In this document: one piece after another, positions 51,241 to 64,000 of the stretch
Layout: the number at the start of each line of letters is the position of its first letter
How positions within the stretch are numbered: the stretch's first letter is position 1
Assembly (NCBI RefSeq): GCF_033110285.1
Contig: NZ_CP136995.1
Span: forward strand, 1,736,001-1,800,000
DNA length: 64,000 bases
Direction: 5' to 3'
DNA from: Ottowia sp. SB7-C50
GTDB lineage: Bacteria > Pseudomonadota > Gammaproteobacteria > Burkholderiales > Burkholderiaceae_C
Translations under genes and position numbers: made by a program
The notes under the pieces: generated by a model
What the model was told of the DNA's origin: nothing
Database searches by the model: none
Seen by the model: only the letters and a program-made list of their open reading frames with translations

Positions 51241-51317
51241 CGGCGTGTAGCGCAGCCTGGTAGCGCACTTGCATGGGGTGCAAGGGGTCGCGAGTTCGAA
51301 TCCCGCCACGCCGACCA
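51241..51317 (+). tRNA. tRNA-Pro (anticodon GGG)
   Basis: 77 bases including the encoded CCA. Acceptor stem CGGCGTG/CACGCCG, anticodon stem CTTGC/GCAAG with loop ATGGGGT (anticodon GGG), T-arm GTTCGAATC. Its 3' end is a typical integrase attachment site, and the accessory island begins right after it. Confidence 0.95.
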
Positions 51318-55358: not shown

Positions 55359-56171
55359 TTAAATTAAAGTGATGAAAGTTGGCATCAATGGGATGGGTCG
55401 TATCGGCCGCCTTGCACTGCGGGCGGCGTTTGGCGCGGCAGAGCGCCAGTCCGATGACCCGAGGGCGAGTAACCGACTTGAGGTGGTGCATCTCAATGAA
55501 CTCAAAGGGGGGGGCGGCAACGACCGCACATCCACATTTGGACGCACGCGTCCGACTCCATTCGATTTGACGGAGCGTCCAATGCTGATGCAGCAGATCG
55601 CGCGCTCGCTCTCCGCAAGCTCAAAGAGGGATCTGACGTGCATGGAGTCCATGGCACGCCCACTGCTCAGGCCAACGCTGAATCCCATGGCCACAGCCCC
55701 AAGCTGGATGTTTTGTATCGCCGCTCCAAGCGACACAAGCTGATCCACGGGCGGCACATCTGCCCTGTCGGAGACAGTGCACGCTATGGCAACCAAAAGA
55801 ACTGGAGCGCGGTCTGCCTTCTCGCGTGCGGTGACCAGTTGCTCTTCAGAGGCACCAGGATCTCGGTCGAGGAGCGCCAGCGCGAAGGCACGCCCGAGCA
55901 AGTGCCGTGACTCGGCAGGAACGAGCACAAAACGCCACGGAATCAATCGACCGTGATCTGGCGCGGCGGCGGCGAGCCAGAGCAGCTCTTCCAACTGATC
56001 ACTGTTCGGACCCGGATCGACCAGCCACCGCGGCCCGACGTGGCGGCGTGACTGAATCAGATCACGTGCCCGATCGAAATCGACCCGTGCTATGGGCTCG
56101 AAGCCATTCGCCGCGACCTGCAGCGTTGCAGGTTCGTCCTTTTCCGGGCTCGTCGCCGTGCCGCGGATCAT
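55359..56171 (-). CDS. aoxC: nitroreductase family protein (AoxC-like), C-terminus altered
   Basis: FMN-dependent oxidoreductase fold: [80 protein letters not shown]. Overlaps the aioA stop by ATGA, the arrangement of aioA with the nitroreductase gene aoxC in arsenite oxidase operons, so I name it on that ground. The raw frame runs on over the antisense gapdh fragment to 55359; with seven instead of eight G/C at 55507-55514 it would stop at 55502 (..DVRSLPPPL). So the C-terminus is a junction or is misread. Confidence 0.75.
55369..55545 (+). pseudogene. N-terminal fragment of arsenic-operon glyceraldehyde-3-phosphate dehydrogenase
   Basis: [20 protein letters not shown] then [27 protein letters not shown] matches the start of the GAPDH that pairs with ArsJ to form and export 1-arseno-3-phosphoglycerate. 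After about 55 codons, past an eight-G tract (55507-55514), the similarity ends and the DNA becomes the 3' end of the nitroreductase gene on the other strand. No arsJ is present. This is a truncated remnant. Confidence 0.7.
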
Positions 56172-57646
56172 GAGTAGCGCCGTTCCTTGAAGCTGATAGA
56201 TTGCTTCCAGTCCTCAACGCTGCCAACGCGCTGGACGCTGGCCCAGGTGCCCTTGTAATACGGCACGACGTTCCGATCCACCCAGGATGTCACGACGTCG
56301 CCTGCAACGCCCTTGATGTAGCCGAACAGCATGAATGTATGCCCGGGCTTGATCGACTTCATCGGGTATGCCATGGCATAGGTGCTTCCGAAGTCGTTCC
56401 ACACCTCGATCACATCGCCAGCCTTGATGCCGAGTTGCGAGGCGTCCGCTGGATTCATTTCCAGGTAGGCCATGGGATAGCGATCGCGCACAAAGCTGTT
56501 GTATTGATCGTGGTATGCGGTCTGCCACACCTCGTTGGCGCGTCCCTGGTTGATCCAGAATTTGTGCTTTGCCTTCTGATCGGACACCATCTTCGGTAAT
56601 CCGTTCCACGGCGCTGGCTTGAATTCAGCCTTGCCGTCCTTGGTGTCGAACTTGTAGTCGGCATACAGCATTTCCGTGCCGATCAACTTGCCGTCCTTGA
56701 CCTCCTTGATTGGCAACTGCACGCCGTTGTTGCCGGCCTTGCGCAGCAGTTCGTAGGTGGCGAGGTAACCCGTGTCGCCACCCTGGCTGTCGATGGGCGG
56801 CGAGCCAGGCCGCCCCGCGCGACGAAAACCGTCATTGAAGGCGTCTTCCTCGCTCGTCCAGTTGAAGCCGTCGAAGCGAGCAGCCATGTCGGCCTTTCCC
56901 TGCTTCTGGTACATCGCTTTCAGCGTGTTGGCGATGTCCGCCGCGATCAGGCAGTCTGCCTTGGCAGAGCCCGGCGGGTCCATGAACTTCTCGGACAGTC
57001 GCAGACGTCGCTCGCCATTCATCGACGTGAGGTTCGCCTCGCCTGGGTGGGCGGCAGGCAACAGCATGTGCGCCTCTTCGGCGATCATCGTCGGGTACAG
57101 GTTGATCCCCACCACGAACATTCCGCCTTTGGTCTTGCAGGCGTTGTAGATCACATCGATCAATTGCTCAGTGTTCGCGCCGCGCGCCTTTGCAATTGCT
57201 TCGTTAACGATGGCTGTCCGCTTGTGGAGTGCGAGGCGATGCTGCTCAGCGTTCAGGGTCGTCTGGAACGGGTTCCATTGCACGCGGGTAACGTGCTCTG
57301 CAAACTCGATCCCGAGCTCTGCCTCTCGACGCTTGCGCACCAAGAATGGTTGCAGTAACCGTAGAACCTCCAGCGCATTTCGGCTGCGATAGGTCAGGTA
57401 GTAGACGTTGCTGCGAACGCGGCCAGTGCCTGTGTGAATCAGGGAGCCCCCGCACGGCACGCCCAGAACCTGCTTCAGGTGCTCGAGCGTGCGAAGGCAG
57501 TTCTGGCTCACAGTGACCTCCAGGCTATACGTCGGGTTGCGCTTGGTGCGACGGCGGGCAATGCGAACGCAGCCCTCACCGTCAATGAATCCTGCGGCCC
57601 AGGCCAGTTGCAGTTGTGATCGATTCAGCTTCATCTGTATCTCCAA
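56168..57646 (-). CDS. chimeric ORF: LAGLIDADG homing-endonuclease domain fused to the C-terminal part of arsenite oxidase AioA
   Basis: 492-residue open frame made of two unrelated parts. Residues 1 to about 153 are a LAGLIDADG protein ([18 protein letters not shown] carries the motif). From about 154 on, [20 protein letters not shown] and later [20 protein letters not shown] to the end are the C-terminal 338 or so residues of the AioA molybdopterin subunit, which oxidises arsenite; length of whole AioA is about 820. The N-terminal half with the Fe-S site is absent and no AioB precedes it. So the oxidase is inactive here. The fusion is read through in frame without a stop. Confidence 0.8.
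57185..57646 (-). mobile_element. LAGLIDADG homing-endonuclease domain (part of the chimeric ORF)
   Basis: About 153 residues with one LAGLIDADG motif, [10 protein letters not shown], and a second region [20 protein letters not shown]; single-motif enzymes work as dimers. There are no intein splicing blocks before it (only 15 residues). It may be a free-standing or intron-type homing endonuclease inserted in, or recombined with, aioA. The junction at about 57185 is approximate. Confidence 0.65.
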
Positions 57647-58064: not shown

Positions 58065-58728
58065 CGGCCTGCGCCAATCTCGCCGAATACATGCGGTAGC
58101 GGTGCAGTCGAACGCACTTGGGTGAGCGCGCCAAGCCCGGACTTGGAAGTTTTACGAATCGGAGGGGCTTCTGCCAGGGCGGCCTCACGACGCGTTGCGA
58201 AAGGCAGAACAAGGCACGGAGCGGACCATCGCCACGGGTCCGTCCGTGTCTCAATACGTCCCGTTAGCGGACGATCTTCGACCGCCAGCATCAACGGTGG
58301 GCTAACAAGAGGCTGTCGGATCGACCACAAGCCAATCGAACGGAAGGCTCCGCGAATTTCTCGACTGCTTCCTAAAAGCTTCACATGCCGATTCGTGCTC
58401 GATCACACAGCCTACGACTTTCTATGGGCCATGCTCGCTGGCATTGCGATGCCCGACTTCAAGGCGACACCCTTGAAGCTGAAAACCGTTTCGAGCGAGC
58501 ATACGGATTCTGAGACTTGACGTCGGCGCACAAATCTGGTTACGATTTGGTCGCGGTTCAGCCGAACCGTGGGTGAGTTGCTCCCGTCAGTGCACGCACC
58601 GGACACCTGTCCGGCCTGGCAAAACCAGCGTGAAGTACCCCGTTCATTTTCCCGGCTTGGTTTGAGTCCCGGAAAGCCGAACAACGCGTGCCGTTCTTCA
58701 TTGTGCTTTCCATGACGGAGCTCAATCC
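58065..58728. other. 660-bp stretch without a recognised gene
   Basis: Between the HTH gene and the four-gene cassette. An open frame at 58122-58520 codes for basic low-complexity sequence with no domain I recognise and is probably not real. The right part carries the probable cassette promoter (58517-58546) and a 5' leader of some 180 bases. Confidence 0.45.
58517..58546 (+). promoter_or_regulatory. putative promoter of the four-gene cassette
   Basis: TTGACG (58517-58522), 18-bp spacer, TACGAT (58541-58546), upstream of the gene starting at 58729. Confidence 0.4.
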
Positions 58729-60465
58729 ATGGCAACGCCCACTTCGGGTTCTTCGGCCGCTGCGGCCGCATCCCCTTCCCCCTCTGCTGCTTCGGCGGCG
58801 CCCCTGACCGACGAGGCACGCGCCGGCGCTCTCTGGACCTTTCTCCAAGCCCAGGCACCACGCTTCACCTTCGACCAAGCGCTCGACGTCGTCCAGTCGC
58901 TGCGCATCGACCCGCGCGAGGATCACAAGACACTCGCCAAGCGTCTGCGCAAGGCGCTGCAAGAGCGGCGCATCGCGCTCAAGCACGTGAATGCCCTGCA
59001 TGCTGCGGCCCGGCTGAACGGTCACGCCAGTTGGCACACCGATGACGAGACGGCGGTTGCGCGCCTGCGCTTCGAGGTCATCGACAGCGGCCCCCAGATG
59101 CGGCAGTCCGACTTCGCGTCTTGGAGCGAGCTTGCGGCAGCGTTGCGCGCCTGGGCCGACAAGCTACATGCCAGCGGCCAGCTGCCGCTGGGCGTGCTGG
59201 TGATGAACTTCACCGGCCGCTTGCTTCGCTTCATGGTTCCTGTGCCCAAGCAAGGTGAAGGTGCAGGCCCGGGCCGCAACGAGTTGTGGACCGTAGCTGG
59301 TGTCGGACCAGTGTCTGACGATGATCAGGACTGGCTGGCCGAAGCGCCGGCCGCGCTGGAGAAGCTGCGCCGGCACCTGGAGGAGACCGGCAAGGCCGTG
59401 CTGGACGGCTACGCCACGCTCTACCTGTGCGCCAACTCCCATGACCGAGCCGGCGACATCAACGCCGTGGCTGCTGGCGACGTCTTGAATTCCGAGCTGG
59501 TGCTGCTGCGGGAACCGGATGAGGGCGACCCGCACAGTGGCTACGAAATAGCCCGTGGCGACGAGCTGACCTGCTGGCACCAGTTGGAGCTGTCCCTGCG
59601 CGATGACCAGACCGCGCGCACGCCGGTGTCCATCGATGTGCACATCCCGCAAGAGGGCGCGGGGGCCTGGTTCGTCAATGGCGAGCGCTACGTGTGGGCG
59701 CTGGAAACGTTGAAGCCTGACGAATTCGTGCCGGGGCGCGTCAACCGGCAGCTTGGCATCCCGGACTGCGAGCGGCTGCTGCGCCGCTACAAGCTCGCCC
59801 GGCGCATCCACGACGGCGGCTTCCGCCACCACGACATAACCAAGCGCGTTGACTATCTGGGTGGGCCGCCGGAGACGTGGCGTGTCGATCTGCACCGGTT
59901 GCTGCGCATTTTGAATAAGGCTGGCCTGACCTGGGAGAGATACATTGAGAAGTTCGGCGCCGAGCCGCTGCCGATGAAGGCCATCCTGCCGGTGGGCTTC
60001 GTAATGCAGATGCTGGAGGATCTGGAGGTCGAAGAGCCGAACAAGGTGTTCGCTTGGCCGACACTGGCCGAAATGGCGCCCGTCACGGACGACAAGCTGC
60101 TGTACAGCCTGCTGCCACGGGTGGATGCTGTCCGCTACGTCAAACCGAAGGATCTCGACGAGCAGACCGCAGCCGATGTGCACAAGGCCATCGACGAGTT
60201 CGTAGGCGCGCTGCAGATGCACAAGATGGTGGCGGCTGGGGGGCTGCCAATGGAGAGCGATCTGCCGTACCTGGTGTACGCCAACGATGCCCAAGAACTG
60301 CGCATGTCTGCGGAGGCCCTAGGCATGCGGCTGTACGTGGCGGTGTCGCCGCACCTCATCTCGACCAAAGGCTTGCTGCCCGAAGTGCCGGGAGTGAAGA
60401 CGTGGCCGTGGGCGTTCGCACACGCGCTCCTCGTGCGCTACGAGCGCGAAGGAGCTGCGCAATGA
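58729..60465 (+). CDS. hypothetical protein of a putative defence cassette (gene 1)
   Basis: 578 residues. Residues 1-30 are Ala/Ser/Pro-rich low complexity. About 62-105 (KTLAKRLRKALQERRIALKH then VNALHAAARLNGHASWHT) resemble a short N-terminal helical module found in plasmid and island proteins annotated as glyoxalase-related. The rest shows no motif I can name; it is acidic and probably soluble. Its stop overlaps gene 2 by ATGA. No signal peptide or transmembrane helix. Function unknown; linkage to two nucleases and a helicase suggests a sensor or effector role. Confidence 0.65.
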   Translation: MATPTSGSSAAAAASPSPSAASAAPLTDEARAGALWTFLQAQAPRFTFDQALDVVQSLRIDPREDHKTLAKRLRKALQERRIALKHVNALHAAARLNGHASWHTDDETAVARLRFEVIDSGPQMRQSDFASWSELAAALRAWADKLHASGQLPLGVLVMNFTGRLLRFMVPVPKQGEGAGPGRNELWTVAGVGPVSDDDQDWLAEAPAALEKLRRHLEETGKAVLDGYATLYLCANSHDRAGDINAVAAGDVLNSELVLLREPDEGDPHSGYEIARGDELTCWHQLELSLRDDQTARTPVSIDVHIPQEGAGAWFVNGERYVWALETLKPDEFVPGRVNRQLGIPDCERLLRRYKLARRIHDGGFRHHDITKRVDYLGGPPETWRVDLHRLLRILNKAGLTWERYIEKFGAEPLPMKAILPVGFVMQMLEDLEVEEPNKVFAWPTLAEMAPVTDDKLLYSLLPRVDAVRYVKPKDLDEQTAADVHKAIDEFVGALQMHKMVAAGGLPMESDLPYLVYANDAQELRMSAEALGMRLYVAVSPHLISTKGLLPEVPGVKTWPWAFAHALLVRYEREGAAQ

Positions 60466-61430
60466 CGCCGGTCGCCGAGAATCTGCGCGAGCTCCTCGAA
60501 GCCCGCGACATTGACGGCTTCCTGACCGCCCTGGAGGACTACTGCCAACAGCACTCCTTCGAGCCCGTGGTCACTGCCTTAACTCAGCGGGTGTTCCCAC
60601 CGCTGCTGCGCACGGCGCTCCAGGAGAAATGCGTGCCACCCACATCCCTGGTTCGGCTCTACCGCATGGTGCGCTCCGGCAAGCTGCTGCTCGTCGAGGA
60701 CGACCTCCTCGCTGCCATCAACCTGCTCATCAACGATGCCGTCCGCAAGGTGGAGCCGGCGACGGTCACGCCGGTGCAGCCGCTGATCACCGGGGAAGAT
60801 GTAAGGCCGAAAGCAGTGCGGTGGTCGCCGCCCTCGGCGCCAAGCGGCCAGCGGCTGGCTGCAACGGAGATGAAGCGGATTGCCGTCGTCAGCGCCTTCA
60901 CCTTTGGCGTCTGGGCTGCGGTCGATGCGTTCGACTTCCGCCGCAACGCCTGTGCCAGCCAGCAGGAGCGCGAGTTCCTGTGCGCGGTCCGCCAGTTCTT
61001 CCCGTCGCTGCAGGCCTACCCCAACATGCCGGTGAAGAACTTCATCGACATCGACAAGCTCGAGGCGATCGTTCCGGCGCGGGTCCGCCAATACGCCTGG
61101 TTGGCGCAGGTAGATGTCCTGCTGTGCACCGCCGACGAAGACCCGGTGGCCGGAATCGAGCTGGACTCCGTGCACCACGACACCGAGGAAGCGGCCGAGC
61201 GCGACGAGCTGAAGAACCTGCTTTTCAAGCTCGCCGGGCTGCCCCTGGTGCGTATCAGGGCAGACGACGAGAAGGCGGTGCGAGCGGAAGACTTCTACGA
61301 CCTGCTAATGGCGGAGTCCAAGACGCTGGATGCGATCAGGCCGCGGCGCCTGCGGCCGAGAAGGACGCACGACTTCCTGGTGCCTGCCGAATTGGCCACA
61401 CGCACGGCACCCGCAAACATGGCTCGGTGA
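60462..61430 (+). CDS. DUF2726-like PD-(D/E)XK nuclease (gene 2)
   Basis: 322 residues. A helical N-terminal half (1-150) leads to a domain about 180-290 with REFLCAVRQFFPSLQAYPNM, WLAQVDVLLCTADEDPVAGI ELDSVHHDTEEAAERDELKN LLFKLAGLPLVRIRADDEKA: the D...(D/E)xx... layout with a following basic helix fits DUF2726-type restriction-endonuclease-like folds. This is inferred from pattern, not alignment. It starts inside the stop of gene 1 (ATGA) and its stop overlaps a possible GTG of gene 3. Confidence 0.65.
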   Translation: MTPVAENLRELLEARDIDGFLTALEDYCQQHSFEPVVTALTQRVFPPLLRTALQEKCVPPTSLVRLYRMVRSGKLLLVEDDLLAAINLLINDAVRKVEPATVTPVQPLITGEDVRPKAVRWSPPSAPSGQRLAATEMKRIAVVSAFTFGVWAAVDAFDFRRNACASQQEREFLCAVRQFFPSLQAYPNMPVKNFIDIDKLEAIVPARVRQYAWLAQVDVLLCTADEDPVAGIELDSVHHDTEEAAERDELKNLLFKLAGLPLVRIRADDEKAVRAEDFYDLLMAESKTLDAIRPRRLRPRRTHDFLVPAELATRTAPANMAR

Positions 61431-61435
61431 TAGAC

Positions 61436-62311
61436 ATGGAAGAAGTAGTCTCCCCGTTTCAGCATGAGACCGACGGACGTCTTCGGCCCGCCCGCCGGCG
61501 GGAGCAGGAGCGGCCCACTCCGGGCGAGCCGCTTGCACTCGACAAGCCCGAGGTCAAGGAGGTGATGGAGACCGAAACGGGCTGGCATCTGCCAGTTTCG
61601 GTCGTGATGGGCACTGACTACGAGAAGCTCATGCAGCTACGCATGGCGGTTCGCACCCAGATGCGCAACGACGATCCGCTCTATCGATGCTCGCTGTGCG
61701 GCGTCGCAGTCCACATCTGCCGCTCCAAAGACAAACCGAAGTTCTTCTTCAAGCACCGGCACGAAGATGGCAGTTGCCCCGCGCAGACCAAGGGTGAGTT
61801 GAGCCAGGACGAAATCAATGCCCGCAAGTACAACGGCGCAAAGGAAAGCAGGCTACACCGCCGCATGAAGGCTTGGCTCTGCCAGTGCCTGGCGGTGGAT
61901 GGCCGGTTCGAAGACATTGCCCAGGAGCCCACCTGGAAAGGCCCGCTGACCGGCACCCGCCGGCGACCGGACGTCAAAGCCATGTACAACGGACTGCCCA
62001 TTGCCTTCGAGATCCAGCTGTCCACGACGCACCTGGATGTCATCGCCGCGCGGCGCGACTTCTACATGCAGGAAGGCGGACTGCTGGTCTGGCTGTTCGC
62101 CGAGTTCGACACCGAACACCGGCGTATGACCGATGACGATGTCTTCTACAACAACAACCTGAACGCCCTCGTCGTCAACGCCAAAACGGTTGAAGCGTCA
62201 CTAATAGCGAAGGAGTTCCTGCTGGACTGCATCTGGGCACAGCCCGTCAAGGAGGGGGGGCCATTCAGGCCTATACCGCCGTGTCGTGCCCTTCCACGAA
62301 CTGCAGCTTGA
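61436..62311 (+). CDS. CoiA-like/DUF6035-type nuclease with zinc-finger region (gene 3)
   Basis: About 290 residues. A cysteine/histidine cluster LYRCSLCGVAVHICRSKDKPK then FFFKHRHEDGSCP looks like the zinc-ribbon of CoiA-like proteins, followed by the PD-(D/E)XK-like stretch TRRRPDVKAMYNGLPIAFEI QLS (acid, acid-X-Q). A GTG at 61427 overlapping the gene 2 stop is an alternative start. The end is uncertain: at a seven-G tract (62254-62260) one base fewer lets the frame continue as ..HSGLYRRVVPFHELQLDPKA and stop at 62400, 6 bp before gene 4, which I think is right. Confidence 0.65.
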   Translation: MEEVVSPFQHETDGRLRPARRREQERPTPGEPLALDKPEVKEVMETETGWHLPVSVVMGTDYEKLMQLRMAVRTQMRNDDPLYRCSLCGVAVHICRSKDKPKFFFKHRHEDGSCPAQTKGELSQDEINARKYNGAKESRLHRRMKAWLCQCLAVDGRFEDIAQEPTWKGPLTGTRRRPDVKAMYNGLPIAFEIQLSTTHLDVIAARRDFYMQEGGLLVWLFAEFDTEHRRMTDDDVFYNNNLNALVVNAKTVEASLIAKEFLLDCIWAQPVKEGGPFRPIPPCRALPRTAA

Positions 62312-62405
62312 CCCGAAGGCCCAGCAGGCATACGCAATCGCAATGAATGCAGTGCCGCTGGCTCAGGTCGTAGCCGCTCCTTCAAAGACTGCTACGTAGC
62401 CTGGT

Positions 62406-64000
62406 ATGAACCAGCACCTCCTCCGATGGATTGGCGATGCGGACGCAGTCAGGCACAGCGAACGCTTCAAGGTGGACCAAATCACCGTTCGGCAAGCTGA
62501 AGTTCAGGCTCGAACTGATGACTACTACATAGCACTTGTGGGCGAGTTGTTCACCAGAATGCGAACCCGGTCAGAAGACGCTGACGGCTGGTCGAGGCTA
62601 GGGAACGCGCTTGCATTGATTGCCGCGCCTGGGCAAGAGCAAGAGCTCAAGCGCTCGGGCATCTCGCAGCCGGAAGCGACCCTGTTTGCCGCAACTGCTT
62701 TTTATTGCGGTGGGTTCCCAGCCTCAGCAAACATAACCATAAAGAGCCGCCGTGGCGATCCCGCCGAGTCAGAAAGCTACCTAGCCTGCGCAGACCTACT
62801 CGAGCGACCCACTGCTATGAGGTCGCAGCTAGGCCGATACCTGCTTGATGCTCTGGAAAGAGGGGCGCTCCAGCAGATCGAGGACATCCGCCTGAGCACG
62901 GAGAAAGATGCGGCGAGGAAGTTGGACGTAAGTGCCACCGAATGGATCCCGGCACGGCTACTGGAGAACCTGGTTAGGCGCTTCGCAAGTACGAACGTCC
63001 GAGCCGTGTTGCCCGATGGGGACAGCGCAGTCTGGACTCCCTTCGTTCAATCGCTACTGAGGCGACGCACACCAATATGGGACTTCTTCCCTTCGCAAAT
63101 CGAGGCAATAAAGCGCGGCCTGATTGAGTCCGACCAGACATTCTCGCTTCAGATGCCAACCAGCGCTGGGAAGACCGCGCTGATGGAGACGCTCCTCTAC
63201 TGGCACGCTGGAAAGACACGAACGGAGATCGCAATCCTGCTAGTGCCGTTTCGGTCGTTGGCTTCCGAGTTGAAAGGCAGTCTGGTCCGACATCTCAACG
63301 ACCTTAGAATCCCGGCGAAATGCATCTACGGTGGCACCGTGCCGACGGGCGATGAGGTTCACGACCTTGCTGCGACACGAGTGATCATCGCTACCCCGGA
63401 GGCACTGTCTGGCCTCTTGAATGCCGGCGAGCTCGTTCCGAGAATTTCCCTCGTCATCTGCGACGAGGGACACCTCCTTGACGGCGAGGGACGTGGCGTG
63501 GGCCTGGAGATGCTGCTTGCCCGACTGAAAACGAGGCTGAGCGGCCCTCCTCGTTTCGTCTTCATTTCCGCCATCGTGCCCAACGTTGAGGAGATCAACT
63601 CCTGGCTAGGGGGAGACGAAAGTGGCGTTGTCAGGAGTTCATACCGCCCAGCAATTGCCGAGTATTCCGTTCTCCGTCCTCGGGGTGACGGAGTGAACCG
63701 GCAGATTGATTTGGAGATGCACCCGCAGCTAGAGGATGACGCCAGCTACCGTATGGCGAATTTCCTCGGCAGATCCGCGTTCCAGTATCAGAACGAAGAC
63801 ACTGGGAGGTTGAAGACATATAGCTTTGCGTCCAACAAGGTCCTGGCAGTCGCCGCAGCGCGGAAGGCACTGAGAATCGGGACGGTGGCTCTCTTTGCGG
63901 GGAACAAGCGGGGGGGACCGCGGCGCAATAGGGATGGCTGAAGAACTGAGCAAACAGCTTGCTCTGCCGCTTGATCTACCGTCTCCTCAAAGCTACGCTG
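62406..64000 (+). CDS. SF2 DEAD/DEAH-type helicase (gene 4, cut by the window edge)
   Basis: N-terminal helical region of about 230 residues, then a superfamily 2 helicase core: Walker A MPTSAGKTALMETLLYWHA at about 248, motif Ia ILLVPFRSLASELKGSLV, motif Ib VIIATPEALSGLL, Walker B VICDEGHLLDGEGRG (DEGH) at about 351, motif III FVFISAIVPN. The raw frame stops at 63941 after a seven-G tract (63910-63916); with six, coding continues as GMAEELSKQLALPLDLPSPQ beyond 64000. Helicases of this shape (long N-terminus, DEGH) are found in defence systems of Hachiman type, but no HamA-like gene is adjacent. Confidence 0.75.

What the first reader, a model, noticed from the sequence alone, without database searches (positions are those of the whole stretch)
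58729..64000. Four-gene nuclease-helicase cassette, candidate undescribed defence system
Genes 1-4 overlap or nearly touch (ATGA at 60462; GTGA possible at 61427; 6 bp at 62400 after frame correction) and form one operon: unknown protein, DUF2726-like nuclease, zinc-ribbon CoiA-like nuclease, and SF2 helicase with DEGH box. Two nucleases plus a helicase in a tRNA-borne island is a typical shape for phage or plasmid defence, but I do not recognise this gene set as a named system. The helicase resembles those of Hachiman-type systems, yet no HamA-like gene is beside it.
Basis: partly seen in the sequence, partly recalled or inferred. Interest (0 to 1): 0.75.

Follow-up and report, generated by a model that had tools for sequence, protein, structure and literature searches.

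The report
Truncated nuclease cassette beside Hachiman remnant
The apparent four-gene phage-defence operon is an accident of decay: a three-gene nuclease cassette, still unnamed, lost its end in a rearrangement and now abuts a broken piece of the known Hachiman defence helicase.

Summary
The four reading frames and their spacing are real, but they are not one system. (1) Gene 4 belongs to a known family: it is the N-terminal half of the Hachiman helicase HamB (PADLOC PDLC00194, E=7.5e-177). It changes frame at a 7-G run, and about 200 bp past the window IS5-family transposase DNA cuts it off at residue ~598 of ~993; no HamA is found. (2) Gene 3 is a remnant. DNA 91.7% identical to the window, in a MAG labelled Polycyclovorans, stops matching at 62333, inside gene 3; there the gene runs on for another 168 codons, and 112 of 120 listed homologues keep that part. 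A rearrangement at 62333/62334 put gene 3 next to hamB. None of 80 loci with gene-3 relatives has all four genes. (3) Genes 1-3 are a mobile, uncharacterised set (no PADLOC or NCBIfam match): unknown protein, DUF2726 nuclease, zinc-ribbon/CoiA-like nuclease, tightly packed in L005/L006 and L016. In L022/L126 genes 1-2 lie between Shango and Lamassu. They are plausibly a small nuclease defence module, untested. The locus sits in a ~23-kb tRNA-Pro island that also holds an HmaB-HmaC deletion fusion.

The parts
51241..51317 (+). tRNA-Pro(GGG), left end of the genomic island; 48 of its last 49 bases are repeated at window-frame 74214-74262 (genome 1810214-1810262)
   Evidence: ARAGORN; repeat scan over the contiguous genome stretch
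58515..62333 (+). segment 91.7% identical to an intact three-gene cassette in L006/L005; homology ends inside gene 3
   Evidence: blastn, 3819 bp, one gap
58729..60465 (+). gene 1, 578 aa, unknown; weak Glyoxalase_8-like stretch (aa 62-105, 20.7 bits, below the 23.7 cut-off)
   Evidence: 197 homologues; model pLDDT 73.7, no clear PDB match
60462..61430 (+). gene 2, 322 aa, DUF2726, predicted PD-(D/E)XK-type nuclease, ATGA overlap with gene 1
   Evidence: Pfam 8.2e-14; DVLLCT.DEDPVA..ELDS..HD identical in the 3 copies aligned
61427..62311 (+). gene 3 remnant, 294 aa (ATG of closest relatives at 61436): zinc ribbon DUF7830 + CoiA-like nuclease core; C-terminal part missing
   Evidence: Pfam; 120 listed homologues, median 467 aa, 10 under 400; alignment A1
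62253..62260 (+). frame change in gene 3 at a G run (one base longer than in L006); could be a sequencing error
   Evidence: DNA alignment
62333..62334 (.). rearrangement junction: end of homology to the intact cassette
62334..62399 (+). 22-codon orphan tail (stop included) ending 6 bp before hamB; origin unknown (HamA C-terminus tested, not supported)
62406..63941 (+). gene 4, 5' part of hamB (Hachiman helicase) with DEAD domain and DEGH box
   Evidence: PADLOC PDLC00194 7.5e-177, columns 1-505/995; Pfam DEAD 2.1e-20
63910..63916 (+). 7-G run at which the hamB reading frame changes; could be a sequencing error
   Evidence: frame translations
63895..64000 (+). ORF holding the continuation of hamB in another frame; hamB similarity runs to L002:15200 (window-frame 64200), where IS5-family transposase DNA takes over
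   Evidence: PDLC00194 columns 504-599, E=2.5e-36; tblastn with a full HamB ends at residue 598, L002:15200; IS5 transposase L003:98-1222 minus

Best explanation
The locus is a wreck, not a four-gene system. A mobile three-gene nuclease cassette (genes 1-3) and a Hachiman locus came to lie side by side in a tRNA-Pro island. A deletion or other rearrangement with its junction at window 62333/62334 removed the last 168 codons of gene 3 and whatever lay between there and a point 72 bp before hamB, hamA included if it stood there. hamB then lost its 3' part to IS5-family DNA. As Hachiman the remnant must be dead: no HamA nuclease and no complete helicase. Most likely working of the intact cassette elsewhere (inferred): gene 1 recognises or scaffolds, while the gene 2 (DUF2726) and gene 3 (zinc-ribbon, CoiA-like PD-(D/E)XK) nucleases cut foreign DNA, as a small defence module. 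The truncated copy in the window probably no longer works. Shown: homology break, truncation, HamB identity, absence of a detectable HamA, conservation of genes 1-3. Inferred: loss of a hamA, order of events, defence role, division of labour (I give the defence role about 0.4).
For: HamB identity: PDLC00194 7.5e-177 and 2.5e-36 over adjoining columns 1-599. Break: 91.7% DNA identity to L006 ends at 62333 while gene 3 of L006 continues to 11410; 17 of 17 relatives chosen for alignment and 112 of all 120 listed homologues keep the C-terminal part. HamA is upstream of HamB in L085, L087, L088, L096 and pairs with HamB in L029; the same profile finds none in L002 or L003, and a HamA query finds none in the genome (best E 0.22). 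In the 4 genomes with relatives of genes 1-3 the HamB query gives at best E 6e-5. Genes 1-3 as a set: L005/L006 and L016; 8 shared contig lengths between the listed gene-1 and gene-3 homologues, none with HamA; gene-1 N-domain fused to gene-3-type proteins in L017 and L018. Defence context: genes 1-2 between Shango and Lamassu in L022/L126; PDC-S28 5.6 kb from the L016 cassette; Hma remnant in the same island.
Against: The tail before hamB does not resemble HamA C-termini (150 of 500 shuffles reach the best score; -0.2 bits), so loss of hamA is not shown. L095 has HamB but no HamA in the stretch held. 8 of 120 listed gene-3 homologues also lack the C-terminal part (196-368 aa; one of them, P0222, shares its contig length with a gene-1 homologue), so short forms exist elsewhere, some perhaps contig-end fragments. 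Both frame changes lie at 7-G runs and could be sequencing errors. Independent DNA copies of genes 1-3 together are few: genes 1 and 2 near gene 3 in 4 of 80 loci, of which L005 and L006 are 99.99% the same and in L022 gene 3 lies 8 kb from genes 1-2. Gene-3 relatives are mostly solitary. The genomes are MAGs of unstated completeness. Defence function is untested.
Confidence: 0.85

Rival explanations
1. The four genes are one undescribed defence system in which the nucleases of genes 2 and 3 replace HamA as effector of a HamB-like helicase.
For: Tight spacing in one direction; two predicted nucleases plus helicase; no HamA nearby.
Against: Gene 3 lacks a C-terminal part kept by 112 of 120 listed homologues; DNA homology to the intact cassette stops inside gene 3; helicase broken and cut by IS5; all four genes together in 0 of 80 gene-3 loci; HamB query at best E 6e-5 in 4 genomes with genes 1-3 relatives; in L029 the gene-3 relative stands beside a complete, separate hamA-hamB.
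Confidence: 0.03
2. Genes 1-3 are a maintenance, transfer or recombination module of mobile islands and plasmids (for example DNA processing in conjugation or uptake) rather than a defence system.
For: CoiA_nuc similarity, a competence-related domain; location beside integrase and AlpA genes in L006; gene-1 relatives on large Acidovorax and Variovorax plasmids.
Against: Between Shango and Lamassu in L022/L126; PDC-S28 near L016; most gene-3 relatives are solitary, with no neighbour family in more than 6 of 79 loci.
Confidence: 0.35
3. Genes 1-3 are not one functional unit: gene 3 is a solitary nuclease that sometimes sits behind genes 1-2.
For: 74 of 80 gene-3 loci have none of the other three query genes in the flanks held, which are short in some; in L022 gene 3 lies 8 kb from genes 1-2, and it is the only gene-3 match in that genome; L091 carries two gene-1 paralogues with other large genes.
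Against: Conserved packing in L005/L006 and L016; 8 shared contig lengths in metagenomes; domain fusions L017 and L018.
Confidence: 0.25

Closest known systems
Hachiman (HamA DUF1837 nuclease + HamB Ski2-like helicase)
   Same: Gene 4 is HamB by profile over columns 1-599; 59.5% identical over residues 177-503 to HamB of a P. aeruginosa plasmid and 52% to HamB in L085
   Different: No HamA found, helicase in two frames and lacking residues from about 599 on
CoiA-like / DUF6035 nucleases
   Different: No competence locus seen around it; extra C-terminal helical part in intact relatives; truncated in the window
DUF2726 restriction-endonuclease-fold proteins
   Same: Gene 2 matches DUF2726; DUF2726 is described as an REase-fold DNase found fused to AbiJ-NTD3 (PMC3710099, passages seen)
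   Different: Here a separate gene overlapping gene 1, with its own N-terminal half of unknown kind
CoiA-domain defence protein of the E. coli pangenome screen (PMC9519451, passages seen)
   Same: A CoiA domain was reported there in a phage-defence protein
   Different: No PADLOC model matches genes 1-3 or the intact gene-3 relative P0121; I did not compare the two proteins directly

Membership tests
Hachiman | HamB Ski2-like helicase, N-terminal half | tested here: met
   PDLC00194 7.5e-177, columns 1-505; continued 504-599 at 2.5e-36
Hachiman | Complete HamB (RecA1, RecA2, degenerate winged helix, C-terminal helices; domain list from PMC12278908 passages) | tested here: not met
   Similarity to a full HamB (L085, 993 aa) ends at residue 598 where IS5-family DNA begins, with no further match in L002 or L003
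Hachiman | HamA (DUF1837) nuclease gene beside hamB | tested here: not met
   None in L002/L003 with a profile that finds HamA in L029, L085, L087, L088, L096; no genome match (best E 0.22; one search also none, but its controls were silent)
Hachiman | Tail before hamB is the end of hamA | tested here: inconclusive
   Not better than shuffles, -0.2 bits to the HamA profile
CoiA-like / DUF6035 nuclease (gene 3) | Profile match and conserved nuclease residues | tested here: met
   DUF6035 2.9e-13, CoiA_nuc 24.4 bits over cut-off 20.3; P181, D182, E195, Q197 invariant in 18 rows
CoiA-like / DUF6035 nuclease (gene 3) | Complete protein as in relatives (median 467 aa) | tested here: not met
   294 aa, homology stops at 62333; 112 of 120 listed homologues keep the missing part
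CoiA competence proteins | Role in DNA uptake by natural competence | not testable with these tools
   Function not tested
DUF2726 nuclease (gene 2) | Profile match over the domain | tested here: met
   8.2e-14, 51.9 bits over cut-off 24.7, positions 5-115 of 126
Any named defence system in PADLOC-DB 2.0.0 (genes 1-3) | Match to a component model | tested here: not met
   0 families at E<=1 for each of genes 1-3; 0 at E<=0.1 for the intact gene-3 relative
Proposed four-gene system | The four genes co-occur in other genomes | tested here: not met
   0 of 80 gene-3 loci have all four; HamB query at best E 6e-5 in the 4 genomes with genes 1-3 relatives

The most novel reading that the evidence does not exclude
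Genes 1-3 in their intact form are an undescribed antiphage or anti-plasmid system carried by mobile islands, mainly in Burkholderiales-type bacteria: a new protein (gene 1) controls two different PD-(D/E)XK nucleases, DUF2726 and zinc-ribbon/CoiA-like, and fusions of the gene-1 N-domain to gene-3-type nucleases are a one-gene form of it.
Probability: 0.35. Interest if true: 0.55.

Novelty: new member of a known kind. Interest (0 to 1): 0.33.

Why it matters
It shows that an operon-like row of defence genes can be an accident of rearrangement, a trap for gene-neighbourhood discovery of new systems. It leaves a smaller, testable lead: a three-gene nuclease set with an uncharacterised 578-aa protein that recurs in mobile DNA and in one record lies, in part, between Shango and Lamassu.

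Tried and rejected

Papers: Hachiman, listing and passages of PMC12278908; DUF6035, one unrelated paper, listing only; DUF2726 plus defense, two papers in the listing, passages of PMC3710099; CoiA plus antiphage, listing and passages of PMC9519451; DUF7830, PF25169, PF19500, PF20066, Glyoxalase_8, no paper. No paper was read whole. That the three-gene set is not in print rests on these searches only.
Full report
What is there. The window is genome stretch 1736001-1800000 of an unnamed 3.6-Mb genome. Gene 1 ends and gene 2 begins in an ATGA at 60462; gene 3 can start at the GTG 61427, but its closest relatives start at the ATG that lies at 61436; after the frame change in gene 3 a stop at 62397-62399 leaves 6 bp to the helicase ATG at 62406.

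The helicase is HamB. Against PADLOC the 511-aa frame matches PDLC00194 (HamB1) at 7.5e-177 over columns 1-505 of 995, and the next frame, L002:14895-15365, continues it over columns 504-599 at 2.5e-36. The frame changes at a run of seven G (63910-63916). I fetched the DNA past 64000. With the full HamB of L085 (993 aa) as query the similarity covers residues 1-502 and 502-598 and ends at L002:15200, that is 200 bp past the end of the window; nothing further is found in L002 or L003. There an IS5-family transposase gene runs in from the other side (L003:98-1222, minus strand).

Gene 3 is cut. The 120 listed homologues have a median length of 467 aa. In the alignment of the window protein with 17 relatives that I chose from them, all 17 have a further C-terminal part that the window lacks; of all 120, 112 match that part and 8 (196-368 aa) do not. 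A MAG contig labelled Polycyclovorans (L006) and one labelled Candidimonas (L005), 99.99% the same over 13.4 kb, carry the intact set. Window DNA 58515-62333 aligns to L006 at 91.7% with one gap and stops at 62333, inside gene 3; the gene in L006 runs on to 11410, 507 bp further. Substitutions between the two favour third codon positions in all three genes (94 of 138 in gene 1, 45 of 89 in the first 900 bp of gene 2, 43 of 63 in 805 bp of gene 3), as expected of genes kept under selection. Before the break there is also a one-base length difference at a G run near 62253-62260. So the window copy is the derived, damaged state.

What stood before hamB. A HamA profile that finds these finds none in L002 or L003, and a HamA query finds nothing in the whole genome (best E 0.22). 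It is tempting to read 62334-62399 as the end of a lost hamA, but the test failed: 150 of 500 shuffled tails score as well and the profile gives -0.2 bits. Loss of hamA is therefore an inference from gene order, not a result.

Do the four genes occur together elsewhere? Of 81 gene-3 relatives found in the GTDB genome contigs, 80 were kept. Within the flanks held, which are short in some, genes 1 and 2 are present in 4 of 80 (L005, L006, L016, L022), gene 1 alone in 1 (L017, a fusion), a HamB-type helicase in 1 (L029), and 74 of 80 have none of the three; all four occur in 0 of 80. L029 is instructive: a 468-aa gene-3 relative stands beside a complete HamA1-HamB1 pair on the opposite strand, so gene 3 and Hachiman can be neighbours as separate systems. 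In the 4 genomes behind L005, L006, L016 and L022, which are MAGs of unstated completeness, the HamB query gives at best a partial match at E 6e-5.

Genes 1-3 as a set. L005/L006 and L016 have them tightly packed. In the protein databases gene 1 has 197 homologues and gene 3 335; among the 120 listed for each (contig lengths for 119 gene-3 rows), 8 contig lengths are shared, from 5717 to 270361 bp, and none is shared with the 120 listed HamA homologues; the short ones could coincide by chance. Two gene-3-type proteins, L017 and L018, carry the gene-1 N-terminal domain fused in front (36% and 38% identity, E 1e-10 and 2e-7). Against a fixed unit: in L022 the only gene-3 match of the genome lies 8 kb from genes 1-2, most gene-3 genes are solitary (79 loci examined, L005 left out as a copy; no neighbour family in more than 6), and an Acidovorax plasmid has two gene-1 paralogues followed by a 1372-aa and a 727-aa gene instead.

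The island. 48 of the last 49 bases of tRNA-Pro (51241-51317) are repeated at genome 1810214-1810262, just beyond a tyrosine integrase gene (L003:8734-10074), so the island is about 23 kb. It holds a second deletion fusion: L003:7134-8684 joins the start of HmaB (columns 7-141 of 967) to the end of HmaC (columns 543-934 of 941). Loss of defence-gene DNA is thus seen twice in one island.

Verdict. The four-gene system is not real. What is real is a decayed Hachiman fragment, already known in kind, and a damaged copy of an unnamed three-gene nuclease set whose intact relatives deserve a test.

Noticed in passing
L003:7134-8684 (genome 1807134-1808684): ORF joining the N-terminus of HmaB to the C-terminal half of HmaC, a deletion fusion of an Hma defence system; a dynamin-like GTPase gene lies just upstream (L003:4830-7055).
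   Followed up: partly
window 51241-51317 and genome 1810214-1810262: 48 of the last 49 bases of tRNA-Pro repeated about 23 kb away next to a tyrosine integrase gene: both ends of the island.
   Followed up: yes
window 56168-57646, minus strand: ORF with a LAGLIDADG endonuclease domain fused in frame to the C-terminal part of a molybdopterin oxidoreductase (arsenite-oxidase-like, recalled); Rfam shows no family match there.
   Followed up: partly
L017:9731-11404 and L018:9671-11413: Gene-3-type nucleases with the gene-1 N-terminal domain fused in front.
   Followed up: partly
L126:760-6592 with L022:3396-9435 (record CAITIQ010000197.1): Genes 1-2 relatives lie between Shango (SngABC) and Lamassu (LmuA-LmuB).
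   Followed up: yes
L091/L117 (Acidovorax sp. DW039 plasmid pACDW039_1): Two gene-1 paralogues in a row followed by 1372-aa and 727-aa hypothetical genes and, beyond them, a TIR-domain gene: possibly a different system built on the gene-1 family.
   Followed up: partly
L005 and L006: Two MAGs labelled Candidimonas and Polycyclovorans share 13.4 kb at 99.99% identity: recent transfer, or one of the labels or bins is wrong.
   Followed up: no
L029:7417-13618 (Duganella fentianensis FT93W): Gene-3 relative next to a complete HamA1-HamB1 Hachiman pair on the opposite strand.
   Followed up: yes
P0222 and P0014 (contig length 12832): A 196-aa gene-3 homologue without the C-terminal part shares its contig length with a gene-1 homologue: perhaps another truncated copy of the cassette, or a contig-end fragment.
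   Followed up: no
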